This document shows, piece after piece, positions 1-64,000 of a stretch of 64,000 bases of DNA. The stretch's first letter is position 1. Every line of letters starts with the position of its first letter. This DNA comes from Iamia majanohamensis. GTDB lineage: Bacteria; Actinomycetota; Acidimicrobiia; Acidimicrobiales; Iamiaceae. The notes beneath the pieces are model-generated. The model saw only the letters and a program-made list of their open reading frames with translations. It was not told the origin of the DNA and did not search any database. Where the stretch lies: NCBI RefSeq assembly GCF_028532485.1, contig NZ_CP116942.1:248001-312000 (forward strand). Reading direction: 5' to 3'. Both the position numbers and the translations under genes were made by a program.

Positions 1-480
1 GGCCCGGTCGGTGAGGCGGTCGAAGGCGCCCGGGTCGATGCGGCTGAGGGCGTCGTCGAAGCTGGGCGCCAGGGTCCCGCCGTCCTGGCCGAAGCTGACG
101 TCGCCCTCCACCGTGTCGAGCGGGTGCACCACCACGATGGCGGTGTCGGGCCGGGTGCGCTCGATGACGAGCCCGGCCCAGTCGTCGATGACCGAGAGGG
201 GGGCGTTCAGGAACCCGGCGTTGAAGGCGGGCTCGCCGCCCGCGGCGGTGAAGGTCGCGGGGATGAACGCCCCGTCGAGCATCGAGTTGCCGAAGGCGAC
301 GGTGCGGGGCGGCGCGTCGCTGGCGGTGAGCTCGGCGGCCAGGTCCCACTTGTACTCGAGCTCGGGGTGGCCCCGCTCGTCGGTCTCGGGGATGTGGCCG
401 TCGATCAGGCGGGCCCCGCCCTCGGCCAGGAGGAGCACGGCCAGCACCGCGGCCAGCCAGCGGGCACGGGGGAGCCTCAC
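1..480 (-). CDS. SGNH-hydrolase-like membrane protein (3' end outside window)
   Basis: This partial gene shows 160 codons from a GTG at 480 and runs off the window start. Residues 8-20 form a hydrophobic N-terminal anchor. The motif FGNSM at about residues 63-67 (Ser66) matches the nucleophile block of SGNH/GDSL esterases and of DltD/AlgJ-like proteins, in the GNS rather than GDS form. The next gene upstream, 13 bp away on the same strand, has the same architecture, so the two look like tandem paralogues in one operon. The role is inferred to be extracytoplasmic acyl transfer or hydrolysis beside the MBOAT protein at 3650. The rest of the catalytic triad cannot be seen. Confidence 0.72.
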   Translation of the reverse strand, partial: MRLPRARWLAAVLAVLLLAEGGARLIDGHIPETDERGHPELEYKWDLAAELTASDAPPRTVAFGNSMLDGAFIPATFTAAGGEPAFNAGFLNAPLSVIDDWAGLVIERTRPDTAIVVVHPLDTVEGDVSFGQDGGTLAPSFDDALSRIDPGAFDRLTDRA

Positions 481-493
481 GGTCCGGTCCCGC

Positions 494-1771
494 TCAGGCG
501 CCGGCGTCGAGCGCCACGGCCAGCTCGCGGCTGAAGCGCTCGCTGCCGAGCCGGTTGAGGTGGGCCACGTCGGCGAAGGCGTCGAGTGGGTAGCCGTCGG
601 CCGACAGGTCGAGGACCTCGACGTCGTACTCGGCGGCGATGGTCGTCATCTCGGCCACGCCGTCGGCCAGGCGGCCGGCTGCGGCCGGCTGCGAGGCGAG
701 GGTCTCGGTGGCGATCGGCGGCACCGCGACGACCACCTCGCGGCCGGGGGCGGTCACCGCGTCGAGGAGGGTCCGGAGGCGGCCGAAGCGGTAGTCGGCC
801 CGGGCCGCGGCCAGGGCCATGCGCCCCTCCAGCTCGGGGTTGCGGGTCTCGGCCAGGCTGCGGTCGTGGTACTGCTGGATGCCACCGGTGGGCCGCAGGT
901 TCCCCTGCCAGAAGGTGAGGTCGCGGGGGACGACCTCGCCGTCCTCCACCGTCGCCACCTCGGGGATGCCCTCGCGGGGCGGGGCGCCGCTGAGGGTGTC
1001 GCTCACCGCCCGGCCCAGGGTGCCGGGGTTCCGCAGCGACGAGCGGTGCTCGACGAGGGCCGAGGCGTCGCCCACCCGCTCCTCCAGCTGCTGGCCGGCA
1101 CTCGGGCGGAGGCGGTCGAGGGAGTCGTCGAAGGCGGCCTGCACGGCCTGGCTCCGTCCCTGGCCGGAGGTGACGTCGAGCAGGTCGAGGGGGTTGACGT
1201 CGAGCAGGTCGAGGGGGCTGACCCCGAGCACCAGGACCTCCGGGTCGAGCCCGTCGAGCACGAAGTCCTCGGCCCAGCGGGCCTGGGACCCGACCGGCGC
1301 CCCGACCAGGGCGGCGTTGTAGGCCCGGTCGTAGCTCCCCGAGGTGGTGGCGAAGGTCTCGGGTGACACGCCGGCGTCGGTCATCGAGTTGCCCAGGAAG
1401 ACCACCTCGGGCTGGTCGGCGACGGGACCGGCGGCCAGCTCCTCCAGCCGCTCGGACTTGAGCTGCATCTCGTAGCTGTCGCCGGTGAGCAGCGGGGGGA
1501 GGTGCGAGCTCACGACCCGGGCGAAGAGCTCGGCCACCAGCAGGGTCGCGACCAGGGCCACGATCGCCTTCTCGCCCAGCAGGAGGCGCGACCGGGGCCG
1601 GCTCGGGCGTCCACCCCGCCCGGCGGTGGCGGCCGCGGCCGGCCGAGGGGGGCGCCCGCCGGCGTCGGTGGCGCGCGCCGCGGGCTCGGCCGTGGCCGTG
1701 GCGGCGCGGGCCGACCCCGGCCCGGGCGCCGCGCTGGTCTCCTCGGATGTCGTGGGCCGGTCGGCTGCCAT
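494..1771 (-). CDS. SGNH-hydrolase-like membrane-anchored protein
   Basis: This protein has 425 residues. Residues 1-60 are a Pro/Ala/Arg-rich cytoplasmic tail, about 64-86 form one membrane anchor, and the rest is probably extracytoplasmic. The nucleophile block reads FLGNSMTD with Ser129, and a DVAH motif near residues 401-404 supplies the Asp and His of an SGNH triad, so it looks catalytically complete. Proteins of this kind (DltD, AlgX/AlgJ, PatB) partner with MBOAT acyltransferases in envelope polymer acylation. The cluster that starts divergently at 1817 contains exactly such an MBOAT and a carrier protein. A GGGGAG ribosome site precedes the ATG. The family is well supported, but the substrate is unknown. 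Confidence 0.78.
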   Translation of the reverse strand: MAADRPTTSEETSAAPGPGSARAATATAEPAARATDAGGRPPRPAAAATAGRGGRPSRPRSRLLLGEKAIVALVATLLVAELFARVVSSHLPPLLTGDSYEMQLKSERLEELAAGPVADQPEVVFLGNSMTDAGVSPETFATTSGSYDRAYNAALVGAPVGSQARWAEDFVLDGLDPEVLVLGVSPLDLLDVNPLDLLDVTSGQGRSQAVQAAFDDSLDRLRPSAGQQLEERVGDASALVEHRSSLRNPGTLGRAVSDTLSGAPPREGIPEVATVEDGEVVPRDLTFWQGNLRPTGGIQQYHDRSLAETRNPELEGRMALAAARADYRFGRLRTLLDAVTAPGREVVVAVPPIATETLASQPAAAGRLADGVAEMTTIAAEYDVEVLDLSADGYPLDAFADVAHLNRLGSERFSRELAVALDAGA

Positions 1772-1802
1772 GGGCTCCCCGCACAGGCGCGCGCTGCCCT
1801 CC

Positions 1803-1809
1803 TACACTA
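1803..1809. promoter_or_regulatory. Overlapping divergent -10 boxes
   Basis: The 7-bp stretch contains TACACT on the plus strand (8 nt before the GTG at 1817) and TAGTGT on the minus strand (a short leader before the ATG at 1771). The SGNH operon and the acyl-chain operon therefore appear to fire from one shared point and may compete or be co-regulated. Confidence 0.5.
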
Positions 1810-1816
1810 CGCAGCC

Positions 1817-2755
1817 GTGCCCGCCGTCTCCCTGGCGGCCCGGCCCGGCGAGGTGGTGGCCTTCCCCGGCCAGGGCGTCGACCCCGTGGCCGCCTGCGGG
1901 GTGCTCGACGCCCACGCCGGGCACCCGCTGGTGGCCCACCTGGCGGAGGTCACCGGGCAGGCCGCCTGGGCCCCCGCCGACCTGGCCGACACCCGCGTGG
2001 CCCAACCCGTCATCGTCGCCGCCGGGCTCCTCGCCGCGGCCGACGCCGGGCTCACCCCGGAGGGCGCCGCCCTGGCCGTGGGCCACAGCCTGGGCGAGAT
2101 CACCGCCCTGGCCTTCGCCGGGGCCCTCGACCCCACCGACGCCCTCGACCTGGTCGCGGCGCGGGCGGCCCTCGGCCACGAGGCCCACCAGGTCCGGCCG
2201 GGCCGGATGGTGGCCGCCCTCAAGCTCGACGCCGCCACCGTCGAGTGGGTCCGGCGCCGGGCGGTGGCCGACGCCGGCGGCGTGCTGGACGTGGCCGTGG
2301 TGAACGGTCCCGCAGCCCTCGTCCTGTCGGGGGACCGGGCCACGGCCGACCGGGCCGGCGACCTCGTCGCCGAGGCCGGGGGCGTGCCCCGCCGCCTGGG
2401 CATCGGCGGCGCGTTCCACTCCTCCCTGCTCGTCGGGGCCGTCGCGCCGTTCCGCGCCCGGGTCGCCGCCCTCGCCCCGGCCCCGCCCCGGGTGCCCGTG
2501 GCCCTGTCGACGGCCCCCGTGGTCGTCGGCCCCGGGCCCGAGGACCGCGGTCCCGACGACCTGCCCGAGCTGCTGGCCCGGGCCCTGGTCCTCCCGGTGG
2601 CCTGGGAGCGCACCCTGGACGTGCTGCGGTCCCGGGGTGCCCGCGCCGCGGTGGACGTGGGGCCGGGACGCACCCTCGCCAACCTGGCCGCCCACCTCCC
2701 GGTGCTCCCCTTCCGGGCCCTGGTCGACGCCCCGCCCGCCGCCGGGCCCCGCTGA
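1817..2755 (+). CDS. Malonyl-CoA:ACP transacylase-like protein (FabD family)
   Basis: The product is 312 residues, as expected for FabD, which loads malonyl units onto acyl carrier protein. It carries FPGQG (16-20), the GHSLGE nucleophile elbow with Ser91, an Arg at position 116 where FabD binds the malonyl carboxylate, and GAFHSS with His201. GTG is chosen because a -10 box (1803-1808) sits 8 nt upstream and FPGQG then falls at the usual distance from the N-terminus. It opens the plus-strand operon and is followed after 1 nt by the MaoC gene. This is probably a pathway-dedicated copy, since no other housekeeping fab genes are here. Another short acyl-CoA extender is possible. Confidence 0.85.
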   Translation: MPAVSLAARPGEVVAFPGQGVDPVAACGVLDAHAGHPLVAHLAEVTGQAAWAPADLADTRVAQPVIVAAGLLAAADAGLTPEGAALAVGHSLGEITALAFAGALDPTDALDLVAARAALGHEAHQVRPGRMVAALKLDAATVEWVRRRAVADAGGVLDVAVVNGPAALVLSGDRATADRAGDLVAEAGGVPRRLGIGGAFHSSLLVGAVAPFRARVAALAPAPPRVPVALSTAPVVVGPGPEDRGPDDLPELLARALVLPVAWERTLDVLRSRGARAAVDVGPGRTLANLAAHLPVLPFRALVDAPPAAGPR

Positions 2756-2756
2756 G

Positions 2757-3638
2757 GTGGAGGTCGGCGCCGCCTGGTCGGTGGCCGGGGTCGCGCCGAC
2801 CGCGGCCGACGACGCCCTCGTCGGCCGGGTCACGGGCTGGCCCGCGGACCCGGCGGTCGGCCCCTCGCCGCTGCGCTGGGCCCGGGTGGTGATGGCCGGG
2901 GTCAACGCCGTGGTCGCCGCCGCCGGCGAGGTCGACCCCCTGAGCCTGCGCCTGGTCGACGCCTGGCTGCAGGTCGCGCCCGGCCCGCCGCCGGACCCCG
3001 ACCGGGCCCCGACCTGGGTCGACCGGGCCGAGCCCGGCCGACACGTCGCGGCGGAGGCCCGGCTCCGGGAGGTCGTCGACCTCGGGGCCCTCACCGGCCT
3101 GCGCATCGACGTCGCGGTGGCGGCCGAGGACGGTGCGGACCTCGCCCGCGCCGGGCTCACCCTCGCCGGCCGGGGGGCCGGCCTCGCCGGGGGCACCCGG
3201 CCGGGCCCGCCCGACGGCCCCGGCCCGCCACCGGCCGGGGCCCCCGACGCCGCCCTCGAGCGTCGGGTGGAGGTGGGGGACGAGGCGGTGGCGGGCTTCT
3301 CCGGCTGGGTGGGCGACCCCACACCGATCCACACGGACCGGGAGGCCGCAGCGGCGGCCGGGCTCCGGGGTCCGATCGCCCCCGGCCTGTTCGTGCTCGG
3401 GGTGCTGGCCGCCCACGCGGCCGAGGCCGCCCGCCTGGCGGTCACCGGCGTCGGTGCCCGCTTCGTGCGCCCCGCGGTGGTGGGCGACGAGCTCACGGTC
3501 GGCGTCGGCGGCGCCGCGCCCGGTGCCGGTCCCCGCCTGCGGGCCACGGCGGTCGGGCCGGAGGGCCCGGTCGTGCGCCGGGCCTGGGTCGAGGTCGGCG
3601 GCCCCAGCGGCTCCGACCCGCCGGGCACGCTTCGGTAG
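2757..3638 (+). CDS. MaoC-like hot-dog dehydratase
   Basis: This is a 293-residue protein. The C-terminal part (about 165-270) is a MaoC hot-dog domain with the hydratase signature GDPTPIHTD (Asp187, His192) followed by GPIAPG. The N-terminal half resembles the non-catalytic hot-dog half of double-hot-dog enoyl hydratases, but that is weak. The expected reaction is dehydration of a 3-hydroxyacyl-ACP or -CoA. GTG at 2757 begins 1 nt after the fabD-like stop, implying translational coupling. In context it supplies the dehydration step between the ketoreductases and a reductase. No stand-alone enoyl reductase of the FabI or FabK type is present in the locus. Confidence 0.8.
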   Translation: MEVGAAWSVAGVAPTAADDALVGRVTGWPADPAVGPSPLRWARVVMAGVNAVVAAAGEVDPLSLRLVDAWLQVAPGPPPDPDRAPTWVDRAEPGRHVAAEARLREVVDLGALTGLRIDVAVAAEDGADLARAGLTLAGRGAGLAGGTRPGPPDGPGPPPAGAPDAALERRVEVGDEAVAGFSGWVGDPTPIHTDREAAAAAGLRGPIAPGLFVLGVLAAHAAEAARLAVTGVGARFVRPAVVGDELTVGVGGAAPGAGPRLRATAVGPEGPVVRRAWVEVGGPSGSDPPGTLR

Positions 3639-3649
3639 CCTCGCCGCCG

Positions 3650-5275
3650 GTGACGTTCAACTCCTTCCAGTACGCGCTGCTGCTGCTGTTCGTCGTCGCC
3701 GCGTTCTGGGCCCTCCGGCCCCCGGGCCGGCGCTGGTTGCTGCTCGTCTCGTCCTACGTCTTCTACGCATCGTGGGACGTCCGCTTCACCGCCCTGCTGT
3801 TCGTCTCCACCACCGTCGCCTTCCTCGCCGGCGGGGTGCTCAGCCGCAGCGACGACGACCGCACCCGCAAGCGGGTGCTGGCCGCGACCGTCGTCTTCAA
3901 CGTGGGGTTGCTGGGGTTCTTCAAGTACTTCAACTTCTTCATCGACAGCACCGAGGCCCTGCTCGACCGCCTCGGCACCACCACCCCCACCTGGGCCCTG
4001 CAGATCGCCCTGCCGGTGGGCATCTCGTTCTTCACCTTCCAGATGCTCTCCTACGTCGTCGACGTGTACCGGCGGGAGGCCGACGCCACCGACTCGTACC
4101 TGACGTTCCTGATCTTCGGGTCGTTCTTCCCGCACCTGCTGGCCGGGCCCATCTGCCGGGCTCGGCGCCTCATCCCCCAGCTGGGCTGCACCAAGCGGGC
4201 CCCGGACCCGACCCAGGTCGCCGAGGGCCTGGAGCTCATCCTCATCGGCCTCTTCCAGAAGGTGGCCGTGGGCGACGCCCTCAACCAGGCCACCGGCCCG
4301 ATCTTCGCCTCCTTCACCGACCCCGCCGTGGCCCGTCCGTCGTGGGCCACGCTGTGGGCCGCCACCCTGGCGTCGGTCATCCAGTTCGTCCTCGACTTCG
4401 CCGGCTACTCCAACATCGCCCGGGGCTCGGCCAAGCTCCTCGGGATCGAGCTGCCGTACAACTTCCGCCAGCCCCTCACCCGCTCCAAGGACTTCCAGGA
4501 CTTCTGGCGGCGCGAGCACATGACGCTGATGGCGTGGTTCCGCGACTACGTGTACCGGCCCCTCCACCGCCGCGACGCCAGCCCCTGGTACGACCACGGC
4601 GTCCTGCTGGTGCTCTTCGCCCTCTCGGGCCTGTGGCACGGCGCGGCCTGGGTGTGGGTCACCTGGGGCCTCCTCGTCGGCTCGGTGCTGGTCATCGAGC
4701 TGGAGGTCAAGCGGCGCCGCCACGCCCGCACCCGTGCCGCCCGGAAGGCGGAGCGGGCCGCCCAGCGCGAGGAGGAGCGGCGGGCCGCGGCCGGGGGACC
4801 GGTGCGCCTCGAACCCGACGCCGCCGCCCTCGACGACCCCGACGCCGCCCTGCTGGGCGAGGCCGACCACGTGGCCCCCGAGGCGGGCCCGCCGCTGGTG
4901 GTGCGGGCCCGGCCCCGCGCCCGCCCGAAGGCCGACCCGTGGTGGCGCAGCCTCCCGGTCCACACCTACGTCTTCGTGCTCATCGCCCTGCAGGTCGCGT
5001 GGATCCGCACCGGGGCCATCGGCTCGGGCCTGGAGCTCTACGGCGCCCTGTTCACCCCGTCCGCCGGGGGCATCGACGTCGACATGGCCTTCCTGTTCCT
5101 CTACGCCCTGGTGGCCATGGTGCTGACCGACAACCGCCAGGTGCAGATGGAGCGGGTCGAGGGCACCCCGGACCCGGTCACCCTGCCCCGGGCCGTGGGC
5201 TTCGGCGTCATGGTGGTGCTGATCGTCGTCTTCAGCGGCGCCCCGCCGCAGCCGTTCGTCTACTTCCAGTTCTGA
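3650..5275 (+). CDS. MBOAT-family O-acyltransferase
   Basis: This polytopic membrane protein of 541 residues carries the MBOAT hallmarks seen in AlgI and DltB: FWRREHMTLMAWFRDYVY, then the invariant His330 in SGLWHGAAW. MBOATs move an acyl group across the membrane from a carrier protein or CoA onto an exported acceptor. About residues 350-440 form a long charged Arg/Ala/Glu-rich insertion before the last membrane segments, probably cytosolic. The GTG start is fixed by a TAGCCT box at 3636-3641, 8 nt upstream, so it can also be transcribed without fabD and maoC. The ACP gene follows after 35 nt, supporting an ACP-linked acyl donor. Confidence 0.88.
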   Translation: MTFNSFQYALLLLFVVAAFWALRPPGRRWLLLVSSYVFYASWDVRFTALLFVSTTVAFLAGGVLSRSDDDRTRKRVLAATVVFNVGLLGFFKYFNFFIDSTEALLDRLGTTTPTWALQIALPVGISFFTFQMLSYVVDVYRREADATDSYLTFLIFGSFFPHLLAGPICRARRLIPQLGCTKRAPDPTQVAEGLELILIGLFQKVAVGDALNQATGPIFASFTDPAVARPSWATLWAATLASVIQFVLDFAGYSNIARGSAKLLGIELPYNFRQPLTRSKDFQDFWRREHMTLMAWFRDYVYRPLHRRDASPWYDHGVLLVLFALSGLWHGAAWVWVTWGLLVGSVLVIELEVKRRRHARTRAARKAERAAQREEERRAAAGGPVRLEPDAAALDDPDAALLGEADHVAPEAGPPLVVRARPRARPKADPWWRSLPVHTYVFVLIALQVAWIRTGAIGSGLELYGALFTPSAGGIDVDMAFLFLYALVAMVLTDNRQVQMERVEGTPDPVTLPRAVGFGVMVVLIVVFSGAPPQPFVYFQF

Positions 5276-5310
5276 CGCCCGGGGGCGGGGCGGGCGGTAG
5301 TGTCGCCCCG

Positions 5311-5568
5311 GTGAGCGTGACCGATGCCGAGATCCTCGAGTTCATCCAGGCCCAGGCGCACGAGATCCTCGACGCCGACCCGGCCGAGGTGACCCCCGAG
5401 GTCAGCCTGGCCAAGGACTTCGACGCCGACAGCATCGACGTCATCGAGATGGCGAGCGCGGCCGAGCGGCGCTGGGACATCACCATCGAGGACCACGAGG
5501 TCTACGACCTGACCTGCGTGGGCGACTTCGTGCACCTCATCGCGGGCAAGGTCGCCGCCTCCGGCTGA
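5311..5568 (+). CDS. Acyl carrier protein
   Basis: This acidic 85-residue protein has the phosphopantetheine attachment motif DADSIDVIE with Ser41 as the modified residue. The size and helix pattern are those of ACP/DltC-type carriers. A -10 box TAGTGT at 5298-5303 lies 7 nt before the GTG start. The stop overlaps the ATG of the next acyltransferase (TGATG), so the two are coupled. Its position between an MBOAT and an acyltransferase-3 gene, with FabD, FabG and ketosynthase genes in the same locus, suggests a private carrier for the acyl chain rather than the housekeeping AcpP. Confidence 0.9.
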   Translation: MSVTDAEILEFIQAQAHEILDADPAEVTPEVSLAKDFDADSIDVIEMASAAERRWDITIEDHEVYDLTCVGDFVHLIAGKVAASG

Positions 5569-6938
5569 TGGCCACCCCCGCGGCCGCCGGAGCGCCCCCG
5601 GCGCCCAGGCCGGCCTCGCGGCTGCGCCCCCCCAACGTCCCCAACCCGGCCATGGCCGGCATCCGGGGCCTGGCCGCCCTGGCGGTGCTCGTCTTCCACG
5701 TCGGCAGCCAGCCCGGCGGCGACGGCGAGCCGCTGCTGCGCGGCATCCCCGCCCAGTGGATCTCCCCGCTGGCCATCGTCGCCGTCGGCATCTTCATCGG
5801 CATGTCGGGCTTCTTCCTCTACCACCCGATGTCGCTGGCCCACCTCCAGGGCACCAAGCAGCGGCCCCTCGACTTCTACCTCGCCCGCCGGCTGGGCCGG
5901 ATCTACCCGCCGTACTGGGTGGCCCTCGTCGGCATCGTCGTCCTCTTCGGCTACACGGGGCTCACCGGCTGGGACTGGATCCCCGTCCTCACCCTCACCC
6001 ACGTCTACGACCCCCGCCTGGCCAACGTCGGGCTCTACGTCTCTTGGACCCTCGCGGTGGAGGCGACCTTCTACGTCACCCTCCCGATGTTCGCCTGGGT
6101 CCTGCGGCGCCTCGCCCCCCCGTCGCGGACCACGGTGCGCCAGCGCTTCCGGGCCCAGCTCATCGGCGTGGCCTGCGTGTACCTCACCGGGATCCTGTGT
6201 CGCACGCTCGTCCTGCTGGGCCCCGACAGCTGGCTCACCTACACCAAGTACGCCCTGTTCAACTTCCTCGACGGCTTCGGCGGGGGGATGCTCTTCGCCG
6301 TCCTGCTCAGCTGGCGCAAGGTGGGCCACGAGCTGCCCCGGTGGATGAGCTGGCTGGTCCGCCACCCCTGGGTGTGCCTGCTCTTCGCCCTCGAGCTCTA
6401 CTGGCTCGGCACCACCCTGGGCTTCCCGCCCGGCCTGGAGCTCACCGGCCTGCCCGCCGGCCGTCTCGCCCTGTTCGCGGTGTCGCTGCTGCTCATCATC
6501 CCGCTGCTGTGCCTGCCCGGCATCTTCGACGAGCACGGCACCTCGGCCTACCACCGGGTCTTCGGCAGCACCCCGCTGCTGTGGCTGGGCGGCATCTCCT
6601 ACGGCGTCTACCTCTGGAACCTGCCCTGGACACAGCAGCTGAGCACCCTCCAGCAGACCGGGACCACGACCTTCGGCAGCGACCTCATCGGCACCTGGAC
6701 GCTCACCGCGGACGTGCCCGGCGGCTTCTGGTTCCTGCTCGGCACCGTGTTCCTGGGCTCGGTGGTGGTCGCCGCGGCCAGCTACCTGCTGCTCGAGCAG
6801 CCCCTCATGGCCCGGGTGAAGCGCTACTTCGTCGCCGGGCGGGGCGCCCCCCGGATCCGGACCCCCGAGGGTGGCCCGCAGCGGGCGCCGGCCCCCGGCG
6901 TGCCGGTGGGCGGCGAGCCCGACCCCACCGAGATCTAG
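5568..6938 (+). CDS. Acyltransferase family 3 membrane protein
   Basis: This 456-residue integral membrane protein starts its conserved region with the family signature GIRGLAALAVLVFH (Arg33, His44), followed by about ten membrane segments. Acyltransferase-3 proteins (OafA, WecH type) acetylate or acylate cell-surface glycans or small molecules. It lacks a fused SGNH domain, but two separate SGNH proteins are encoded at 1-1771. The start overlaps the ACP stop, so this protein, the ACP and the MBOAT are probably made together. It could be a second transferase acting on the same polymer, or a modifier of the acyl chain itself. Confidence 0.87.
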   Translation: MATPAAAGAPPAPRPASRLRPPNVPNPAMAGIRGLAALAVLVFHVGSQPGGDGEPLLRGIPAQWISPLAIVAVGIFIGMSGFFLYHPMSLAHLQGTKQRPLDFYLARRLGRIYPPYWVALVGIVVLFGYTGLTGWDWIPVLTLTHVYDPRLANVGLYVSWTLAVEATFYVTLPMFAWVLRRLAPPSRTTVRQRFRAQLIGVACVYLTGILCRTLVLLGPDSWLTYTKYALFNFLDGFGGGMLFAVLLSWRKVGHELPRWMSWLVRHPWVCLLFALELYWLGTTLGFPPGLELTGLPAGRLALFAVSLLLIIPLLCLPGIFDEHGTSAYHRVFGSTPLLWLGGISYGVYLWNLPWTQQLSTLQQTGTTTFGSDLIGTWTLTADVPGGFWFLLGTVFLGSVVVAAASYLLLEQPLMARVKRYFVAGRGAPRIRTPEGGPQRAPAPGVPVGGEPDPTEI

Positions 6939-6947
6939 GGCGCCCCG

Positions 6948-7676
6948 CTAGAGGCCCATGGCCAGGCCGCCGTCGACGGGCAGCACGGCGCCGTTGACGT
7001 AGGACGCCTCCTCGGAGGCCAGGAACCGCACCGCGGCGGCCACCTCCTCGGGCCGCCCGGCCCGGCCCGCCGGGCAGATGTCGGTGGCCCAGGTCCGGAG
7101 GTCGTCGCTGGCGATGCCGAGCAGGTCGGTCTCCACCATCCCGGGGGCGACCACGTTGCAGGTGACCCCGCGGGGGCCGACCTCCCGGGTGAGCGAGCGG
7201 GCCAGGCCCGTGAGGGCGGCCTTGGAGGCGGCGTAGACCCCGGCGCCCGGCGCCCCGTAGGCGGCCACGATCGACGAGACGAACACGATGCGCCCCGAGC
7301 GGCGCCGGGCCATGGACGCCGCCGCCCGGCGGGCCAGGCGGAGCACGCCGAGCACGTTGGTGTCGAGCACCCGCAGGGCCTCCTCGTCGGTGGCCCGCAT
7401 GACCAGCTGGCGGGTGCCGATGGCGGCGTTGGCCACGAGCACGTCGACGGGGCCCAGCTCCCGCTCCACCTCGTCGTAGGCCGCGTCCACCGCCGCGGTG
7501 TCGGTGACGTCGCAGCGCACGGCCAGGAACCCCTCGGGCGGGTCGGTGCGGTAGGTGACCGCCACCCGGTCCCCGGCGGCGGCGAAGGCCTCGGCGCAGG
7601 CCCGCCCCAGGCCGCGGTTCCCGCCGGACACGAGCACCACCCGTCCGGGCCGGTCGGAGGGGGCGGCGTCGGCCAT
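6948..7676 (-). CDS. SDR-family oxidoreductase, FabG-like
   Basis: The 242-residue short-chain dehydrogenase has the nucleotide-binding motif GGNRGLG (18-24), the VFVSS serine block, the YAASK catalytic Tyr/Lys and a C-terminal PVDGG. The probable reaction is NADPH-dependent reduction of a 3-ketoacyl thioester. It lies on the opposite strand to the rest of the locus, convergent with the acyltransferase gene 9 bp away. A TACGCT -10 box at 7684-7689 is 7 nt from the ATG, indicating a leaderless message and separate control. It is one of two FabG-like enzymes here. It may be an unrelated dehydrogenase that merely neighbours the cluster. Confidence 0.8.
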   Translation of the reverse strand: MADAAPSDRPGRVVLVSGGNRGLGRACAEAFAAAGDRVAVTYRTDPPEGFLAVRCDVTDTAAVDAAYDEVERELGPVDVLVANAAIGTRQLVMRATDEEALRVLDTNVLGVLRLARRAAASMARRRSGRIVFVSSIVAAYGAPGAGVYAASKAALTGLARSLTREVGPRGVTCNVVAPGMVETDLLGIASDDLRTWATDICPAGRAGRPEEVAAAVRFLASEEASYVNGAVLPVDGGLAMGL

Positions 7677-7768
7677 CGGCGGGAGCGTACCGGTGTCCCG
7701 CCGGCCCGCCCGTCCCCGGTGGGGCGCGGTCGGCTCGGTCCGGGCCGGGGGCGGCCTACTGTCGGGTC

Positions 7769-8506
7769 GTGCCCGTGCCCGACGGCGTCCCGCCCACCGC
7801 CCTCGTCACCGGGGCGTCGGGTGCCGTCGGCGCCGCCGTCGCCGGCCACCTCTCGGGCCGGGGCTTCGCCGTCGGCCTGCACGCCCACGGCGGCCGCGAC
7901 GCGGCCGAGGGGCTGGCGGCCACCTTGCCCGGGCCCACCGCGGTCGTCACCGCCGACGTGGCCGACGCCGCCGCGGTGGAGGGCGCGGTCGAGGAGGTGG
8001 CCGGGCGCCTGGGCCCCGTCGGGGTCCTCGTCACCTGCGCCGGGGTCCGCGTCGACGGGCTCCTCAGCGCCCAGGACCCCGAGGTCTGGACCCGCACCGT
8101 CGCGGTCAACCTGCTGGGCACCTTCCACGCCTGCCGGGCGGTGCTGCCGGCCATGCTGAGGGCCCGGGCGGGGCGGATCGTGGCCGTCACCTCGCCCACC
8201 GCGACCCAGGGCCGCAGCGGGCAGACCGCGTACGGCGCGTCCAAGGCCGGGGTCGAGGGCCTGGTGCGGAGCCTGGCCCGGGAGGTGGGCCGCCGCCAGG
8301 TCACCGTGAACGCCCTCTCGCCCGGGTTCATCGAGTCGACCATCAACGCCTCGCTGCCCGACGACGTGGTCGACGAGCTGCGCGGCCGCACCGACCTGGG
8401 TCGCTTCGCCGTGCCCGACGACGTGCTGCCCGCCCTCGACATGCTGGTCGACTCGCCCTACGTCACCGGCCAGGTGGTCGGCGTGGACGGCGGCATCCGG
8501 CTGTGA
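7769..8506 (+). CDS. 3-oxoacyl-ACP reductase-like SDR (FabG family)
   Basis: This 245-residue SDR has TGASGAVG near residue 14, an NxxG-type region, the AYGASKAG catalytic Tyr/Lys block and a closing VDGGI. It matches FabG in length and motifs. The GTG start is 6 nt after a TACTGT box (7757-7762), facing away from the minus-strand SDR. Its stop overlaps the GTG of the luciferase-like gene. The expected job is the ketoreduction step for the two downstream ketosynthases. Confidence 0.85.
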   Translation: MPVPDGVPPTALVTGASGAVGAAVAGHLSGRGFAVGLHAHGGRDAAEGLAATLPGPTAVVTADVADAAAVEGAVEEVAGRLGPVGVLVTCAGVRVDGLLSAQDPEVWTRTVAVNLLGTFHACRAVLPAMLRARAGRIVAVTSPTATQGRSGQTAYGASKAGVEGLVRSLAREVGRRQVTVNALSPGFIESTINASLPDDVVDELRGRTDLGRFAVPDDVLPALDMLVDSPYVTGQVVGVDGGIRL

Positions 8507-9348
8507 GGCTGGGCCTGACGACGGGCTTCGGCACCGTCGGACCGCCCGACGACGTGGCCGCCCTCGTGGCCCACGCCGAGGCGGTGGGGTTCGACTCGGT
8601 GTGGCTCACCGAGCACGTGGTGGTGCCCGTCGACCACGCCCCCCGCTACCCCTACACCGACGACGGGCGGCTGCCCATCGGGGCCGGGGCGGACCTGCCC
8701 GACCCGCTCACCTGGCTCGCCTTCGCCGCCGCCCACACCCGCCGTCTGCTGCTCGGGACCGGCTGCCTGGTGCTGCCCCAGCGCAACCCGGTGGTGCTGG
8801 CCAAGGAGGCGGCCACCGTCGACCGGCTGAGCGGCGGGCGGCTGCGCCTCGGCGTCGGCCTGGGGTGGATGCGCGAGGAGGCCGAGGCGGTGGGCAGCGC
8901 GTGGGAGGACCGCGCCGACCGAGTGGAGGAGGGCATCGCCCTGCTCCGGGACCTGTGGTCCCCCGGGCCCTCGGCCCTGCCCGGCGGACCCGCCCTCAGC
9001 CTGCCCGCCCCGTCGGCGGGCACCGTGCCCATCGTCGTGTGCGGCCCCAGCCGGGCCGCGGCCCGGCGCGCCGGCCGGGTCGGCGACGGCTACCTCTGCG
9101 GCCACCGCGACCCCGAGGTCGTCGCCGACCGCCTGGCCGCCCTGCGCGCCGCGGCCACCGACGCCGGTCGCGACCCCGACGGCATCGAGGTCACGGTGGG
9201 CGCCACCCCCCGGCTGCGGACCCTGGAGGCCATGGCCGCCCTGGGCGTGCACCGGGCCTTCGTCACCCTGCCGTGCCGGGGCGCCGAGCGCGACCGGGCC
9301 GCCCTCGACCGCCTGGCGCCCCTGGTGGAGGCGGCTGCCGCCCTCTGA
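8503..9348 (+). CDS. Luciferase-like (LLM) flavin/F420-dependent oxidoreductase
   Basis: This 281-residue TIM-barrel enzyme carries the LLM family blocks: GFDSVWLTEH near residue 30, LLGTGCLVLPQRNP, and GRLRLGVGLGW with the typical Glu-rich helix after it. Actinobacterial members often use F420 or FMNH2. The exact reaction cannot be read from sequence. The GTG overlaps the preceding FabG stop (GTGA), and the ketosynthase pair follows, so it is almost certainly part of the acyl-chain pathway. An oxidation or double-bond reduction of the acyl-ACP is possible, which could substitute for the missing classical enoyl reductase. Confidence 0.8.
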   Translation: MRLGLTTGFGTVGPPDDVAALVAHAEAVGFDSVWLTEHVVVPVDHAPRYPYTDDGRLPIGAGADLPDPLTWLAFAAAHTRRLLLGTGCLVLPQRNPVVLAKEAATVDRLSGGRLRLGVGLGWMREEAEAVGSAWEDRADRVEEGIALLRDLWSPGPSALPGGPALSLPAPSAGTVPIVVCGPSRAAARRAGRVGDGYLCGHRDPEVVADRLAALRAAATDAGRDPDGIEVTVGATPRLRTLEAMAALGVHRAFVTLPCRGAERDRAALDRLAPLVEAAAAL

Positions 9349-9397
9349 CCGGGCCCGACGGGGCCGGGCGGCGCGCCCCGTCGGTAGGGTGCCGGAC

Positions 9398-10573
9398 ATG
9401 GCCTCCAGGGACGGGCGCAGGGCGGTCGTCACCGGCGTCGGCGTGGTCACCGTCGGGGGCGGCGACCCCGAGGCGCTGTGGGCCCACCTGCTCGACCCCG
9501 AGGCCGGTCCGGGCGACGGCTTCCTCCACGGCTTCGACCCCTCGGTCGCCATCCCGCGGCGCCGGTCGCGCCGGATGGACCCGGCGACCCAGTACGCGGT
9601 GGTGGCCACCGCCGCCGCGCTGGCCCAGGCGGGCGACCTCGACCTCGCCCCCCACCGGGGCGCGGTGCTCATGGCCAGCACCTACGGGGGCATCACCTCC
9701 TACGACGACGCGGTGCGGGCCCAGGTGGCCGAGGGCCCCGCCGGGGTCAACCCGCTGGTCTCCACCGCCGCGGCCGCCAGCACCGGGGCCTCCGCGGTGG
9801 CGGTCGAGGCCGGCTTCACCGGCCCCACCCTCTCGGTCGGCGCGGCCTGCGCCTCGGGCTCGACGGTGCTGGTGGAGGCCCTGGACAAGATCCGCGCCGG
9901 CCGGGCCGACGTCGTCGTCGCCGGGGGCACAGAAGCCCCCCTCACCCCGACGATCCTCACCGCCTTCTCCGGGCTCAAGGTCTTCACCGCCAGCCGGCCC
10001 CGCCCCTTCGACGCCGAGCGCGACGGCTTCGCCTTCGCCGAGGGGGCCGGCGTCCTCGTCGTGGAGGAGCGGGAGCGGGCCCTCGCCCGGGGGGCCACGG
10101 TGCTGGCCGAGGTCGCGGGCGGCTCGGCCGCCACCGACGTGTCCGGCGTGTACGCGCCCAGCGACGGGGCGGCCGTGGTCGAGCAGTGCATCCGGGCCGC
10201 CCTCGACGACGCCGGGGTGGACCCGGCCGACATCGCCCACGTCAACGCCCACGGCACCGGGACCCGCGCCAACGACGCCTCCGAGGGGGCCGCCCTGGAG
10301 CGGGTCTTCGGCCCCGACGTGGTCGTCACCGCCAACAAGGGGGCGGTCGGCCACGCCGGCGCGGCCGCCGGCGCCATCGAGGCGGTGGCCACCCTGCTGG
10401 CCATGGAGCACCGGCTCATCCCGCCCACCGCCGGGCACCGCACCCTCGACCCCGAGCTGCACCTCGACGTGGTGGCCGGGGCGCCCCGCCCGTGGGAGCC
10501 GGGCCCCGTCCTGTCCAACGCCCTGGGCCTCGGCGGCTACGTGGGCTCGCTCGTGCTCCTCCCGCCGCCGTGA
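9398..10573 (+). CDS. Beta-ketoacyl-ACP synthase, KAS II (FabF)-like, first copy
   Basis: This is a 391-residue thiolase-fold ketosynthase. The active-site block is GAACASGS with Cys151, followed by VNAHGTGT and GAVGHAGAAAG, giving the complete Cys-His-His triad. ATG at 9398 is preferred over the GTG at 9389 because a TAGGGT box (9385-9390) ends 7 nt before it. The gene condenses malonyl-ACP with an acyl primer. It overlaps the start of a second ketosynthase. Both keep their cysteine, so this is not a classical KS-alpha/chain-length-factor pair. Confidence 0.88.
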   Translation: MASRDGRRAVVTGVGVVTVGGGDPEALWAHLLDPEAGPGDGFLHGFDPSVAIPRRRSRRMDPATQYAVVATAAALAQAGDLDLAPHRGAVLMASTYGGITSYDDAVRAQVAEGPAGVNPLVSTAAAASTGASAVAVEAGFTGPTLSVGAACASGSTVLVEALDKIRAGRADVVVAGGTEAPLTPTILTAFSGLKVFTASRPRPFDAERDGFAFAEGAGVLVVEERERALARGATVLAEVAGGSAATDVSGVYAPSDGAAVVEQCIRAALDDAGVDPADIAHVNAHGTGTRANDASEGAALERVFGPDVVVTANKGAVGHAGAAAGAIEAVATLLAMEHRLIPPTAGHRTLDPELHLDVVAGAPRPWEPGPVLSNALGLGGYVGSLVLLPPP

Positions 10574-11751
10574 GCGCGCCGGCGCGCCGGCGGGTGGCGG
10601 TGACCGGGCTCGGAGCGGTGAGCCCCGGCGGGGTCGGGGCCGAGGCCCTCTGGGCGCTGGTGACCCGCGACCACGACGCCCCGGTGCGGCGGGACGTGCC
10701 CGACTTCGACGGGGGCCGGTGGCTGGAGCGGCGCGACCTGCGGCGCACCGGCCGTGCCGCCCAGTACGCGGTGGCCGCCTGCGTCGAGGCCTGGGAGGCC
10801 GCGGGCCTGGCCGGCGCGGTCGACCCGGCCCGGGTGGGGATCGTGCTCGGCAACGCCTTCGGGGCGTCGGACACGCTCCACGAGGCGGCCCGGCTCCACC
10901 TCGAGGAGGGCCCCGAGGCGGTGCCCCCCGCGTCGGGGCTGCTGGCCTGCAGCAGCTCCCTCGCGGCCGTGCCGGCCCGCCACCTGGGCGTGCGGGGCCC
11001 GGTGCTGGTCGCCTCCGGGGCCTGCGCCAGCGGCGTCTACGGGGTGGCCGACGGCGCCCGCCTGGTGGCCCACGGCGAGGCCGACGTCGTCCTGGCCGGC
11101 GGGGTCGAGGGCCCCATCTCGGCCTCGGTCACCGCCGCCTACGCCAACCTGCGGGCCTCCTCCCGGTCGGGCTGGGAGCGGCCCTTCGACCGCCGGCGCG
11201 ACGGCTTCGTCTACGCCGAGGGGGCCGGGGTGCTGGTGCTGGAGGCGTGGGACGAGGCCGAGGCCCGGGGCGCCCGGGTCCTGGGCGAGGTGGCGGGGTG
11301 GGCCAACACCAACGACGCCCACGACATGGTGCGCCCCACCGGGACCGGGGCCGAGGACTGCATGCGCCTGGCCGTGGCCTCGGCCGGGCTGTCGCCGGCC
11401 GAGGTCGTCCACGTGAACGCCCACGGCACCGGCACGGCCCTCAACGACCCGGTCGAGGCCGAGGCCATCACCGCGGCCCTGGAGGGGGCCCGCCCGTCGG
11501 TGACCTCGGTCAAGGGGGCCACCGGCCACGGGGCGGGGGCGGCCGGGGCGGTGGAGGCGGTGGTCGTGGTCCAGTCCTTCGCCCACCGGCTGCTGCCCCC
11601 GGTCGGCGTCGACGTCGACGTCGACCCCGCCATCGACCTCGACCTGGTGGTGGGGGCGCCCCGGCCCTGGGTGCCGGGGCCGACCCTCGACAACGCCTTC
11701 GGCATCGGGGGCCAGAACGGCACCGTGGTGCTGGTGCCGCCGGCGCCCTGA
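10570..11751 (+). CDS. Beta-ketoacyl-ACP synthase, FabF-like, second copy
   Basis: This 393-residue ketosynthase has GACASGVYG (Cys152), VNAHGTGT and GATGHGAGAAG, again a full triad. The GTG start overlaps the first synthase's stop (GTGA), so the two proteins are probably produced in equal amounts and may form a heterodimer. The two copies are clearly divergent in sequence, which suggests different chain-length or primer preference. This is the last gene of the acyl-chain operon. The convergent tadA gene ends 35 bp away. Confidence 0.88.
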   Translation: MSAPARRRVAVTGLGAVSPGGVGAEALWALVTRDHDAPVRRDVPDFDGGRWLERRDLRRTGRAAQYAVAACVEAWEAAGLAGAVDPARVGIVLGNAFGASDTLHEAARLHLEEGPEAVPPASGLLACSSSLAAVPARHLGVRGPVLVASGACASGVYGVADGARLVAHGEADVVLAGGVEGPISASVTAAYANLRASSRSGWERPFDRRRDGFVYAEGAGVLVLEAWDEAEARGARVLGEVAGWANTNDAHDMVRPTGTGAEDCMRLAVASAGLSPAEVVHVNAHGTGTALNDPVEAEAITAALEGARPSVTSVKGATGHGAGAAGAVEAVVVVQSFAHRLLPPVGVDVDVDPAIDLDLVVGAPRPWVPGPTLDNAFGIGGQNGTVVLVPPAP

Positions 11752-61835: not shown

Positions 61836-62272
61836 TGGCACGCGACCAGATGCCCGCCGACGATCCCCACATCCGGCCCGAGGGGGCCGACGACGCCACC
61901 GTCGAGGCGGTGGGCAAGCTGACCGAGGCCCTGGAGTGGGTCGAGCGGGCCCGGGGCGACCTCTACGACTTCCACCAGAAGATGGGCCACGCGGACCTCA
62001 CCATCGGCAAGGCCGCCGACGCCCTCGAGGAGGCGGGTCACGCCGAGGTGGCCGAGCGCATCCGCACCGAGCTGGTGGGCCGCAACACGATCGTCGGGCG
62101 CTGGACCTTCCAGATCGTCGAGGAGTTCGACGACGGCTACTGGTCCGACGTCCGCGCCGGCGAGAAGCGCGTCCGTGACGAGCTCCTCGACGGCCGCCGC
62201 CACGTCTTCGAGTCCGAGATGAAAGAAGACCGCCGCACCCACGGTCGGAAGGACCACGAGTCCCGCCCGTAG
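61835..62272 (+). CDS. Conserved hypothetical protein, all-helical
   Basis: The 145-residue hydrophilic protein has long helices (AVGKLTEALEWVERARGDLYDFHQ, cut here to its start) and a mid-segment VGRNTIVGRWTFQIVEEFD with a basic/acidic tail. I recognise it only as a type frequently encoded in actinobacterial genomes, without known function. It is coupled to the metallophosphoesterase by a TGATG overlap. Confidence 0.75.
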   Translation: MARDQMPADDPHIRPEGADDATVEAVGKLTEALEWVERARGDLYDFHQKMGHADLTIGKAADALEEAGHAEVAERIRTELVGRNTIVGRWTFQIVEEFDDGYWSDVRAGEKRVRDELLDGRRHVFESEMKEDRRTHGRKDHESRP

Positions 62273-62460
62273 CGGCAGGGAACGGGCGCTCGGGGCCTCC
62301 TCGCCGTCGCCGATGTGCCCGTCGCCCACCACGACCCACGTAGGCGCCTGGGCCGAGCGGGTCCCCCGCTGAGCTTATTCGCAGTGGACGATGCAGACTC
62401 CAGGAGACCGCCGACGGACACTGAGGACAAGCAACTTCACGAAGATGGTGGAAGACACCC

Positions 62461-63738
62461 TCATTTGTGCGAGAACTGACGATCAGCGAGATGAAGAAAA
62501 TATAGGTCTTTCAGTTCAATGGCCGACTTGTCTTCAAGGAACTTTGAGTGCCCCACCACCGGGGCACCGAGGAGAGTTGCGAGTCCAGGTGCAATGATAA
62601 GAGGCATCGCGGTCACGAGACCAACGACCGTTGTCAACGCACCTACCGCAACACCGCCAAGCATCTTCTTGTCAAGAACGCTTCGTGCTTTCGACAGTGA
62701 GAGCCGCAGCTTGGCAAGTTCCGGAGCTACGATGTCCGACTCAACTTCTCTTGCAACTTGTGCCGGGTCTTTGCCTGGGTCGGCCCGGAGTTTCGCATCG
62801 ATGGCGGCCGTGATGGCGGCTCTGAAGATCTCGAACTCGTCTTCATGATCGCCGCGTACCTTCAGGAGTTCCCTCGTCGACAAACCTGCCAAAACGGGTA
62901 GTTGCAAAGAAAGCGCTACGTCCGCAAGGCTCGGGTCACGGCTGTTGGTAGGGGCGAGATCTACAAGCCGTCTGGCATCGGCAGTTAGCGGCGCACCGAG
63001 GTGTTGTGACATGGCGGCGTCACCAACTAGTGAGGTACAGATCTTTCTGAACTCGCTGTCTGCGTACCCTTCGATTGACGGCGGTTCTTCGCCAGGATGC
63101 TGTATGTACTGGCTGCCGGTTTCAAGAACTGGCGAGGTGAAGTAGTACCAAGTGTCCTCACCCATGTTCTCAGTCTCCATCTTTGCGCCGGTTGCGATGA
63201 GCTCTATCGCTGCCGTAGACAAATCCGGATCCAATGCCGTCGTTAGACCAATCTCAGCGGCATGAGTCTCAAAATGATCGGAACAGAAGCGGTTAGGCTT
63301 CGTGCGGAAATCAAGATGAGGTTCTACCCCGATTTGAGCAGCACGCAGCAAGACACTCGCGTGGTTCTTTAAGTCCCACGACGCCTCATCTCGATCCGTC
63401 TCAATGTCAGAGCAGAAGTTGAACGGCGCGTACCCTTCAACAACGATGGTATCGAAGTATTGAAAGGCGTGGCTGAGACCATGCTCGAGGTCCCGCTGGA
63501 GACATGGCGATCCCTTGCAAGTGGTAATTCCTGAGAGGTCATTGACTCGTGAGGCGATCGCTGTCTTTGGTCCTGCGGACTCGGAACTATCGCTGAACTC
63601 GGCCGCAGCTGCAGCAGCGGCGAGGGTTTCCGCTAGATCTAGGTTGGCAGCGTTCTTTATAGCCTCGCCGACGCTTGTCACATCGCTTAGATCCAGGGCA
63701 TCCAGCCATTGTCGAATCCAGTACTCCCGCACTTGCAT
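62461..63738 (-). CDS. Hypothetical protein, low-GC, C-terminal hydrophobic hairpin
   Basis: I do not recognise this 425-residue protein. It is mostly soluble and acidic, with several His and Cys (KGSPCLQRDLEHGLSHAF, FCSDHFETHAAEIG). A long helical region with charged residues is followed by a hydrophobic stretch at about 345-385 (GVAVGALTTVVGLVTAMPLI), probably a membrane hairpin. GGAGG lies 4 nt before the ATG at 63738. The frame stays open upstream to 63798 and beyond, so a longer protein is possible. Composition marks it as acquired. A defence or mobile-element cargo role is speculation. Confidence 0.7.
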   Translation of the reverse strand: MQVREYWIRQWLDALDLSDVTSVGEAIKNAANLDLAETLAAAAAAAEFSDSSESAGPKTAIASRVNDLSGITTCKGSPCLQRDLEHGLSHAFQYFDTIVVEGYAPFNFCSDIETDRDEASWDLKNHASVLLRAAQIGVEPHLDFRTKPNRFCSDHFETHAAEIGLTTALDPDLSTAAIELIATGAKMETENMGEDTWYYFTSPVLETGSQYIQHPGEEPPSIEGYADSEFRKICTSLVGDAAMSQHLGAPLTADARRLVDLAPTNSRDPSLADVALSLQLPVLAGLSTRELLKVRGDHEDEFEIFRAAITAAIDAKLRADPGKDPAQVAREVESDIVAPELAKLRLSLSKARSVLDKKMLGGVAVGALTTVVGLVTAMPLIIAPGLATLLGAPVVGHSKFLEDKSAIELKDLYFLHLADRQFSHK

Positions 63739-63799
63739 AAAGCCTCCGACGATGACGTGAGGAAAGTGTACCGAGGGCTGAGGTCGCGAGGCCGCCACT

Positions 63800-64000
63800 T
63801 CACTTGTAGTAGCAACGAACCTCGTCGGGCGTGCAGGTGGGGCCCTTGACGGGTGGGTGACATGGGTGTAGCTCCGCCCGCTCAGGTTTTCGCAAGCTAC
63901 GACGTGGCGCCAACCTTGAGTGAAGGCGATGCCCTTGGAGCCCGGCTTTGGCTGGGCAGGGCGAAGTGCGCAGGCTCGTCTTCGAGAGTCACTGCCTGCC
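63800..64000 (-). pseudogene. Possible frameshifted gene fragment at the window edge
   Basis: On the minus strand one frame reads like protein (GIAFTQGWRHVVACENLSG, then YTHVTHP). A second frame continues it (PVKGPTCTPDEVRCYYK) to a stop at 63800-63802. Joining them needs a one-base shift near 63845-63850. It may be a degraded gene, an error, or chance. No family is recognised. Confidence 0.3.

What the first reader, a model, noticed from the sequence alone, without database searches (positions are those of the whole stretch)
1..11751. Candidate system: private type II acyl-chain line coupled to a Dlt-like envelope O-acylation core
Seen: MBOAT, acyl carrier protein, acyltransferase-3 and two SGNH-like membrane proteins lie with FabD-like, MaoC, two FabG-like, two complete ketosynthases and a luciferase-like oxidoreductase, most with overlapping starts and stops. 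Known: DltB (MBOAT), DltC (carrier protein) and DltD (SGNH-like) D-alanylate teichoic acids, and AlgI/AlgJ/AlgX acetylate alginate. Inference: here the carrier is charged by a dedicated fatty-acid/polyketide-like pathway instead of by an amino-acid ligase. The MBOAT would then pass a tailor-made acyl chain across the membrane, and the SGNH proteins would place it on an exported polymer or lipid. I know of no described system with exactly this gene set.
Basis: partly seen in the sequence, partly recalled or inferred. Interest (0 to 1): 0.88.

Follow-up and report, generated by a model that had tools for sequence, protein, structure and literature searches.

The report
Private acyl-chain line feeding envelope acylation
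A rare, conserved bacterial gene set seems to build its own small fatty chain on a dedicated carrier protein and pass it through the membrane to decorate something on the cell surface, combining parts of two known surface-acylation machines.

Summary
The gene set is real and not a chance neighbourhood. A dedicated FabD-type acyltransferase sits beside an MBOAT in six genomes of two families of one order. The six FabDs form one clade (100/94), as do the six MBOATs (99/97). The six carrier proteins assigned to the system separate from housekeeping AcpP (98/95). The shared core is SGNH-FabD-MBOAT; ACP and KS are linked to it in four of six.

DltB takes its acyl group from a carrier protein and lacks the acyl-shuttle hexapeptide. 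PatA-type MBOATs carry FXYXXF at their own C-terminus, and PatA uses acetyl-CoA. This MBOAT ends in FVYFQF and also has a private ACP: a hybrid.

The loop equivalent to DltB's DltC-docking helix diverges from 34 other MBOATs of the order more than the rest of the protein (p = 1.6e-4; segment bounded after looking).

Best reading: the line builds acyl-ACP, the MBOAT moves the chain to Tyr538, and DltD-like SGNH proteins place it on an extracytoplasmic acceptor. Donor transfer, chain and acceptor are inferred. Against it: in G265 the nearest KS lies on another contig.

The parts
1..447 (-). SGNH2: DltD-like SGNH acyltransferase, 332 aa; begins left of the window (L003:9449-10447) and overlaps by 4 bases a PMT_2 glycosyltransferase gene further left
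   Evidence: no Pfam match of its own; catalytic Ser and DxxH aligned in 7 of 7 SGNH proteins
494..1771 (-). SGNH1: DltD-like SGNH protein with an N-terminal hydrophobic stretch, 425 aa; Ser129, Asp401, His404
   Evidence: (Lipase_GDSL_2 5.5e-4, below cut-off); the G265 counterpart passes Pfam DltD
1817..2755 (+). FabD-type malonyl/acyl transferase dedicated to the locus (GHSLGE, AFHS)
   Evidence: Pfam PF00698 1.8e-15; own clade of six, 100/94
2757..3638 (+). MaoC-type dehydratase/hydratase with GDPTPIHTD
   Evidence: PF01575 1.4e-12; motif
3650..5275 (+). MBOAT, 541 aa; His330; C-terminal acyl-shuttle hexapeptide FVYFQF with Tyr538
   Evidence: PF03062 3e-22; DltB 8e-21; motif; clade of six 99/97
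5311..5568 (+). private acyl carrier protein, 85 aa, DSIDVIE, Ser41
   Evidence: PF00550 9.4e-10; separate from AcpP 98/95
5568..6938 (+). acyltransferase-3 membrane protein; earliest ATG overlaps the ACP stop
   Evidence: PF01757 4.7e-17; start choice:
6948..7676 (-). KR1: SDR/FabG-type ketoreductase, YAASK
   Evidence: PF13561 8.1e-57
7769..8506 (+). KR2: SDR/FabG-type ketoreductase, YGASK
   Evidence: PF00106 1.3e-46
8503..9348 (+). F420-dependent LLM-class oxidoreductase (TIGR03619)
   Evidence: 211.8 bits against cut-off 166.9; PF00296
9389..10573 (+). KS1: FabF-type ketosynthase, complete active site
10570..11751 (+). KS2: FabF-type ketosynthase, complete active site; of the KS group found beside MBOAT in G160, G418 and G421

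Best explanation
It is an envelope-acylation machine with its own type II fatty-acid/polyketide-like synthase. FabD loads malonyl units onto the private ACP. KS1/KS2 elongate, KR1/KR2 reduce and MaoC dehydrates. No enoyl reductase is apparent in the locus, so the chain is probably short to medium, 3-hydroxy or unsaturated, unless the F420-type LLM enzyme or a housekeeping enzyme reduces it. The acyl-ACP docks on the cytoplasmic face of the MBOAT, which moves the chain through its tunnel (His330) to Tyr538 of its own C-terminal FXYXXF peptide. That peptide hands it to the catalytic Ser of the DltD-like SGNH proteins, which esterify an extracytoplasmic acceptor, perhaps a glycan made with the neighbouring PMT-type glycosyltransferase. 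SHOWN: gene set, active-site residues, shuttle motif, conserved synteny, separate clades of FabD, MBOAT and ACP, divergence of the docking loop. INFERRED: that acyl-ACP is the donor, the chemistry of the chain, the acceptor, and the role of AT3.
For: Conserved coupling: FabD beside MBOAT in G000, G160, G231, G265, G418, G421. SGNH is in the same locus in 6 of 6, ACP and KS in 4 of 6 (G160 through a 127-base exact overlap of two contig ends). Six FabDs form a clade 100/94; six MBOATs form a clade 99/97 against 34 others. Six system ACPs are separate from 9 AcpPs, 98/95. KS2 groups with the MBOAT-linked KSs of G160, G418 and G421, 97/97, outside housekeeping FabF. FXYXXF is present in all 5 system MBOATs with a complete C-terminus. 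SGNH triad in 7 of 7; their profile's best PDB matches are DltD, and the G265 SGNH passes Pfam DltD (9.7e-11). In residues 300-326, the stretch equivalent to DltB's DltC-docking helix HC and the region behind it, 8 of 14 conserved columns changed in the system MBOATs against 14 of 128 elsewhere, p = 1.6e-4; residue 306 is Gly in 32 of 34 others and His/Arg in 6 of 6 here. DltC contacts from PMC11035591 (passages).
Against: In G265 the KS of the KS2 clade is in the interior of another contig (30.6 of 56.7 kb), so it is not beside that FabD-MBOAT; whether another KS follows the cut MBOAT contig is unknown. In G231 the ACP, KR and KS genes found are on another contig with no overlap. No biochemistry and no complex model: both single-sequence folds were too poor to use (pLDDT 36.5 and 45.2). 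DltB's DltC-contact residues are not conserved here. The docking-loop segment was bounded after seeing the data, and its net positive charge is not higher than in other MBOATs. PatA, the built-in-FXYXXF MBOAT tested in PMC12148441, uses acetyl-CoA, and its authors infer acyl-CoA for the others. KR and MaoC/hotdog genes are seen in two of six loci only (window, G160); most other contigs end early.
Confidence: 0.55

Rival explanations
1. Two steps of one product, not one relay. The FabD/KS/KR/ACP line makes a lipid or polyketide that becomes part of an exported glycolipid, and MBOAT/SGNH (with or without AT3) merely acetylates that product from acetyl-CoA. The ACP never meets the MBOAT.
For: PatA, with the same built-in FXYXXF, uses acetyl-CoA (PMC12148441). 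G018 has a related FabD/KR/KS/ACP set without MBOAT in the 20 kb read (L086), G265 has its KS2-type KS on another contig, and G160 and G265 have ACP-methyltransferase-KR-KS lines, so the line can stand apart. AT3 and a glycosyltransferase are nearby.
Against: FabD-MBOAT adjacency is the most conserved feature (6 of 6), with ACP and KS next to it in G418 and G421. The loop equivalent to the DltC-docking helix is where these MBOATs differ most. The system MBOATs are one clade matched by one FabD clade.
Confidence: 0.29
2. The line only supplies a private short donor. FabD makes malonyl-ACP, the KS decarboxylates it or adds a single unit, and the MBOAT transfers acetyl or another very short acyl group from ACP.
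For: In G418 and G421 the visible set is FabD, ACP and one KS without KR or dehydratase. The MBOAT-SGNH pairs described in PMC12148441 move acetyl or D-alanyl groups.
Against: All ten KSs compared keep Cys-His-His-Lys, whereas dedicated decarboxylating KSs have Gln for Cys (recalled). The window and G160 add KR and MaoC/hotdog genes. The G418 and G421 contigs end just after the KS, so reductases may be out of sight.
Confidence: 0.12
3. Chance neighbourhood of an ordinary MBOAT-SGNH pair and an unrelated fab cluster.
For: MBOATs are common in the order (177 of 397 genomes). Of the 20 MBOAT regions first fetched, one (G265) had a match to this FabD and none to its KSs or ACP.
Against: The unit recurs in six genomes of two families, and FabD and MBOAT each form one clade there.
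Confidence: 0.01

Closest known systems
Dlt D-alanylation system (DltA-DltB-DltC-DltD-DltX)
   Same: MBOAT + carrier protein + DltD-like SGNH; DltB gives the only PDB sequence matches of the MBOAT (8e-21), DltD the best of the SGNH profile
   Different: No amino-acid ligase in the locus; the carrier is an ACP flanked by FabD/KS/KR/MaoC; the shuttle Tyr is on the MBOAT itself, not on DltX; DltB's DltC-docking residues are absent
PatA/PatB, AlgI/AlgJ/AlgX, WssH/WssI (MBOAT-SGNH O-acetylation)
   Same: MBOAT with C-terminal FXYXXF plus an SGNH partner (PMC12148441, passages and section 9 seen)
   Different: Those systems have no carrier protein and PatA uses acetyl-CoA; here a private ACP and chain-building enzymes are linked
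Rhizobial acpXL-fabZXL-fabF2XL-fabF1XL-adhlA2XL-lpxXL locus (very-long-chain acyl group of lipid A)
   Same: Private ACP, dehydratase, two FabF-type KSs, a dehydrogenase and a dedicated acyltransferase in one locus (PMC11901934, passages)
   Different: LpxXL is a cytoplasmic-side lipid A acyltransferase (recalled); its six listed genes hold no MBOAT, SGNH or FabD
Aryl polyene clusters; NodE/NodF/NodA (the latter recalled)
   Same: FAS-like private line whose product ends up in a surface lipid or signal molecule (PMC8041823, abstract opening in the listing)
   Different: Different transferases; no MBOAT-SGNH relay known to me

Membership tests
Dlt system | DltA D-alanine ligase (AMP-binding) in the locus | tested here: not met
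   no AMP-binding domain among the 14 locus proteins scanned with Pfam; rest of the genome not searched
Dlt system | MBOAT is DltB by curated model | tested here: not met
   TIGR04091 135.3 bits against cut-off 375
Dlt system | carrier protein partner | tested here: met
   ACP 35 bases after the MBOAT in the window; ACP also follows the MBOAT in G418 and G421; the 12 NCBIfam matches are general or other ACP models, none named DltC
Dlt system | DltD-type SGNH partner | tested here: met
   profile of 7 SGNH proteins: best four PDB sequences are three DltD and one D-alanyl-lipoteichoic acid synthetase, E 1.5e-5 to 0.04, C-terminal part only; G265 SGNH passes Pfam DltD, 42 bits against 22.7; the window's own two do not
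Dlt system | shuttle Tyr on separate microprotein DltX, not on the MBOAT | tested here: not met
   FVYFQF at the MBOAT's own C-terminus
Dlt system | DltC-contact residues of DltB helix HC (Met302, Val305, Ile306, Met309) | tested here: not met
   phmmer alignment: Arg303 and His306 opposite Met302 and Met309, gap at 305-308 (positions counted by me; contacts from PMC11035591)
PatA/AlgI-type MBOAT-SGNH | C-terminal FXYXXF on the MBOAT | tested here: met
   5 of 5 system MBOATs with complete C-terminus; 35 of 36 complete MBOATs in all
PatA/AlgI-type MBOAT-SGNH | no carrier protein in the pathway | tested here: not met
   ACP of its own clade in the locus; that it belongs to the pathway is inferred from linkage
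PatA/AlgI-type MBOAT-SGNH | acyl-CoA donor | not testable with these tools
   needs biochemistry
acpXL-type private fatty-acid line | private ACP and KSs distinct from housekeeping AcpP/FabF | tested here: met
   ACP 98/95; KS2 clade 97/97, wider KS1/KS2 clade 99/98, outside FabF
acpXL-type private fatty-acid line | LpxXL-family acyltransferase | tested here: not met
   transferase-type Pfam matches in the locus are MBOAT, AT3 and Acyl_transf_1, with a weak GDSL

The most novel reading that the evidence does not exclude
A third class of MBOAT-SGNH envelope acylation: a private type II synthase builds a custom chain on its own ACP, a PatA-type MBOAT with a built-in Tyr shuttle takes it directly from that ACP through a re-modelled docking loop, and DltD-like proteins attach it outside the membrane. 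The neighbouring MBOAT clade (G011), where one MBOAT gene overlaps SGNH and LLM genes beside a KAS III gene, would be a second, differently furnished version.
Probability: 0.48. Interest if true: 0.78.

Novelty: new variant of a known kind. Interest (0 to 1): 0.62.

Why it matters
The MBOAT-SGNH pairs described in the paper read move acetyl or D-alanyl groups. A line that makes its own chain would let a bacterium put tailored acyl groups on surface polymers or lipids. It would also show how an MBOAT switches its donor between CoA and a carrier protein. The prediction is sharp: one Tyr, one ACP Ser and one loop can be tested.

Tried and rejected
1. Single-sequence AlphaFold models of SGNH1 and MBOAT: mean pLDDT 36.5 and 45.2, not used and not searched against fold libraries. 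I added no relatives because the tool's text accepts only window proteins and loci from the search for related loci, the DNA search or the look-up of encoding contigs, and my relatives came from the genome search.

None of the 80 loci had a tblastn match to the window MBOAT at 1e-3. L089 (Nocardioidaceae, 45%) falls in the wider FabD clade but has no such match in 16.5 kb. An absence here is weak evidence.

3. Phylum and class draws: the only match at E below 1e-50 beyond G000 and G018 was G681 (172.5 bits, a little above the best other FabD of the two families, 166). Its 4.6 kb contig holds FabD, KR, ACP and KS matches like a housekeeping fab operon and no MBOAT. These draws and one search scored only the best six or seven candidates a genome, so they can miss members.

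4. A 'more basic docking loop' idea: net charge of the loop (0 to +5 in six system MBOATs) is not above that of the 29 others scored, 26 of them +2 to +4. Rejected. Only the position-specific changes stand.

5. FabD alignment A1 held one row on the wrong strand; replaced by A2. In one search the column printed for the first His was wrong because the motif was not found; the motif was checked.

6. Literature: MBOAT + ketosynthase + acyl carrier protein, 0 papers; DltB + SGNH + acyl carrier protein + MBOAT, 0. Looser searches (30 of 215, 25 of 1,433, 15 of 669 and 15 of 72 papers listed) showed no such system in the titles and abstract openings seen. Only the held open-access library was searched.

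Full report
WHAT IS THERE. The window is bases 248001-312000 of a single 4.58 Mb contig and is about 77% GC. Gene calling with upstream sequence added gives, on the minus strand, PMT_2 glycosyltransferase - SGNH2 - SGNH1. Divergent from these on the plus strand are FabD - MaoC - MBOAT - ACP - AT3, then KR1 (minus), then KR2 - LLM - KS1 - KS2 (plus), ending at 11751; a deaminase gene follows on the other strand. Two to four of twelve junctions overlap, depending on the start codons chosen, and the rest are 1-92 bases apart, so 'most overlapping' is too strong. Both KSs keep Cys, two His and Lys. MaoC keeps Asp and His (GDPTPIHTD), the AT has GHSLGE and AFHS, and the ACP has DSID. Both SDRs have the YxxxK of FabG-type enzymes. 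The LLM enzyme is above the cut-off of an F420-dependent family.

IS IT A UNIT? I searched 397 genomes of the order with the window FabD. Five gave 182.7 bits or more (G000, G231, G265, G160, G018) and the next 104. A profile search of the two families concerned, 24 and 37 genomes, added G418 and G421 (333 and 318 bits; next 166). Neighbourhoods: G231 AT3, MBOAT, FabD, SGNH; G265 MBOAT (cut by the contig end), FabD, SGNH; G160 KR, MBOAT, FabD, a 4HBT hotdog protein, KS; G418 and G421 SGNH, FabD, MBOAT, ACP, KS. A second G160 contig carries KS, KR, ACP, methyltransferase, SGNH, ACP, methyltransferase, KR and the start of a KS. Its end overlaps the first contig by 127 exact bases, so G160 appears to have the whole set in one place. 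So of six genomes, FabD is beside MBOAT in six (MaoC between them in the window), SGNH is in the locus in six, and ACP and KS in four.

RESULTS THAT DO NOT FIT NEATLY. In G265 the KS of the KS2 group lies in the interior of another contig (30.6 of 56.7 kb) with no other system gene in the 20 kb read. In G231 the KS, KR and ACP genes found are on another contig, which ends inside a KS and has no overlap with the MBOAT contig. G018 has the related FabD with ACP, KS and KR but no MBOAT in the 20 kb read, and L089 (Nocardioidaceae) has it without MBOAT. So the chain genes can lie apart from the MBOAT.

CONTROLS. Of 20 regions fetched around high-scoring MBOATs, only G265 showed this FabD, and none showed its KSs or ACP; 11 of 20 showed an SGNH match. 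The search used would not find a KAS III. The six system MBOATs form one clade, 99/97, against 34 others, which are among the best-scoring ones rather than a random sample. The six FabDs form one clade, 100/94, among 56. Six system ACPs (window, G418, G421, two of G160, and the G231 one from the other contig) separate from nine AcpPs, the genome's own included, at 98/95, with one G265 ACP on their side. KS2 groups with the MBOAT-linked KSs of G418, G421 and G160 and the lone G265 KS at 97/97. KS1 and further KSs of G160, G231 and G265 fall in the wider clade, 99/98, outside the housekeeping FabFs.

MECHANISM. PMC12148441 (abstract, passages and one section seen) sets out two kinds of MBOAT-SGNH relay. 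In Dlt a carrier protein is the donor, and the acyl-carrying Tyr is in an FXYXXF peptide on the microprotein DltX. In PatA and its like the peptide is at the MBOAT's own C-terminus and there is no carrier protein; PatA uses acetyl-CoA, and the authors infer acyl-CoA for the others. The window MBOAT ends in FVYFQF. All five system MBOATs with complete ends have the motif, as do 35 of 36 complete MBOATs examined. So the relay side is PatA-like, while the supply side has a carrier protein. The SGNH proteins keep Ser, Asp and His in 7 of 7. Their profile finds DltD first in the PDB (1.5e-5, C-terminal part only), and the G265 member passes Pfam DltD.

DOES THE CARRIER FEED THE MBOAT? Direct proof is lacking. 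Indirect: in DltB the DltC contacts are Met302, Val305, Ile306 and Met309 on helix HC, with Lys312 and Arg317 (PMC11035591, passages). In the alignment the window MBOAT has a four-residue gap there. Comparing six system with 34 other MBOATs, residues 300-326 hold 8 changed of 14 conserved columns against 14 of 128 elsewhere (Fisher p = 1.6e-4). I set the bounds after seeing the list, though I had noted the segment beforehand. Residue 306 is Gly in 32 of 34 others and His or Arg in all six; Arg309, present in 31 of 34 others, is lost in all six. Net charge shows no trend. This fits a changed donor site but does not prove an ACP donor.

CHAIN AND ACCEPTOR (inference). Malonyl loading, condensation, ketoreduction and dehydration are encoded. 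No enoyl reductase is apparent in the locus, so an unsaturated or 3-hydroxy chain is likely unless the LLM or a housekeeping enzyme reduces it. The acceptor is unknown; the PMT_2 gene overlapping SGNH2 hints at a glycan. In the second family the neighbours are a methyltransferase, a large membrane protein and an unassigned protein.

A SECOND, LOOSER CASE. The nearest outside MBOATs (three of G011; joined to the system clade at 100/100 in a midpoint-rooted tree) include one whose gene overlaps its SGNH gene, which in turn overlaps an LLM enzyme, with a KAS III gene next to it. A condensing enzyme beside MBOAT-SGNH has thus appeared there too.

NOVELTY. Dlt, PatA-type relays and private fatty-acid lines for lipid A (acpXL, PMC11901934, passages) are each known. 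I found no paper joining them: searches returned none, and searches listed none among the titles and abstract openings shown, in the held library only. I rate it a new variant of a known kind. It is rare: six genomes, all in one order, in searches that were partly capped. The organism's name was not given and not established.

Noticed in passing
L034:14846-19504 (G011, outside the window): MBOAT, SGNH and LLM genes overlapping end to end, with an adjacent KAS III gene, in the clade next to the system MBOATs.
   Followed up: partly
L086:6973-15208 (G018): Cluster with ACP, KS, KR2-like (53%), FabD, reductase-like and MaoC-like genes beside ABC transporter, UbiA-like, AMP-ligase-like and sugar-nucleotide genes, without MBOAT; product unknown (labels outside FabD/KS/KR are by reading only).
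   Followed up: no
L255:6300-10766 (G265) and L252:5682-14717 (G160): ACP - SAM methyltransferase - KR - KS lines next to large proteins that are radical-SAM by Pfam in L252 and by reading in L255; in G265 also a Rieske oxygenase.
   Followed up: no
L256 (G000:C1:522000-541999): The window's genome also has a large multidomain frame (2430 aa) with two tandem ACPs, AT and KS matches, resembling a PUFA- or polyketide-type synthase.
   Followed up: no
L193:874-2768, L194:7016-8676 and L039:3415-4954: A SAM methyltransferase and an unassigned protein (no Pfam match in L193) lie next to SGNH in G265, G418 and G421.
   Followed up: no
window 62001-64000: GC falls to 0.595 against 0.72-0.81 elsewhere in the window.
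   Followed up: no
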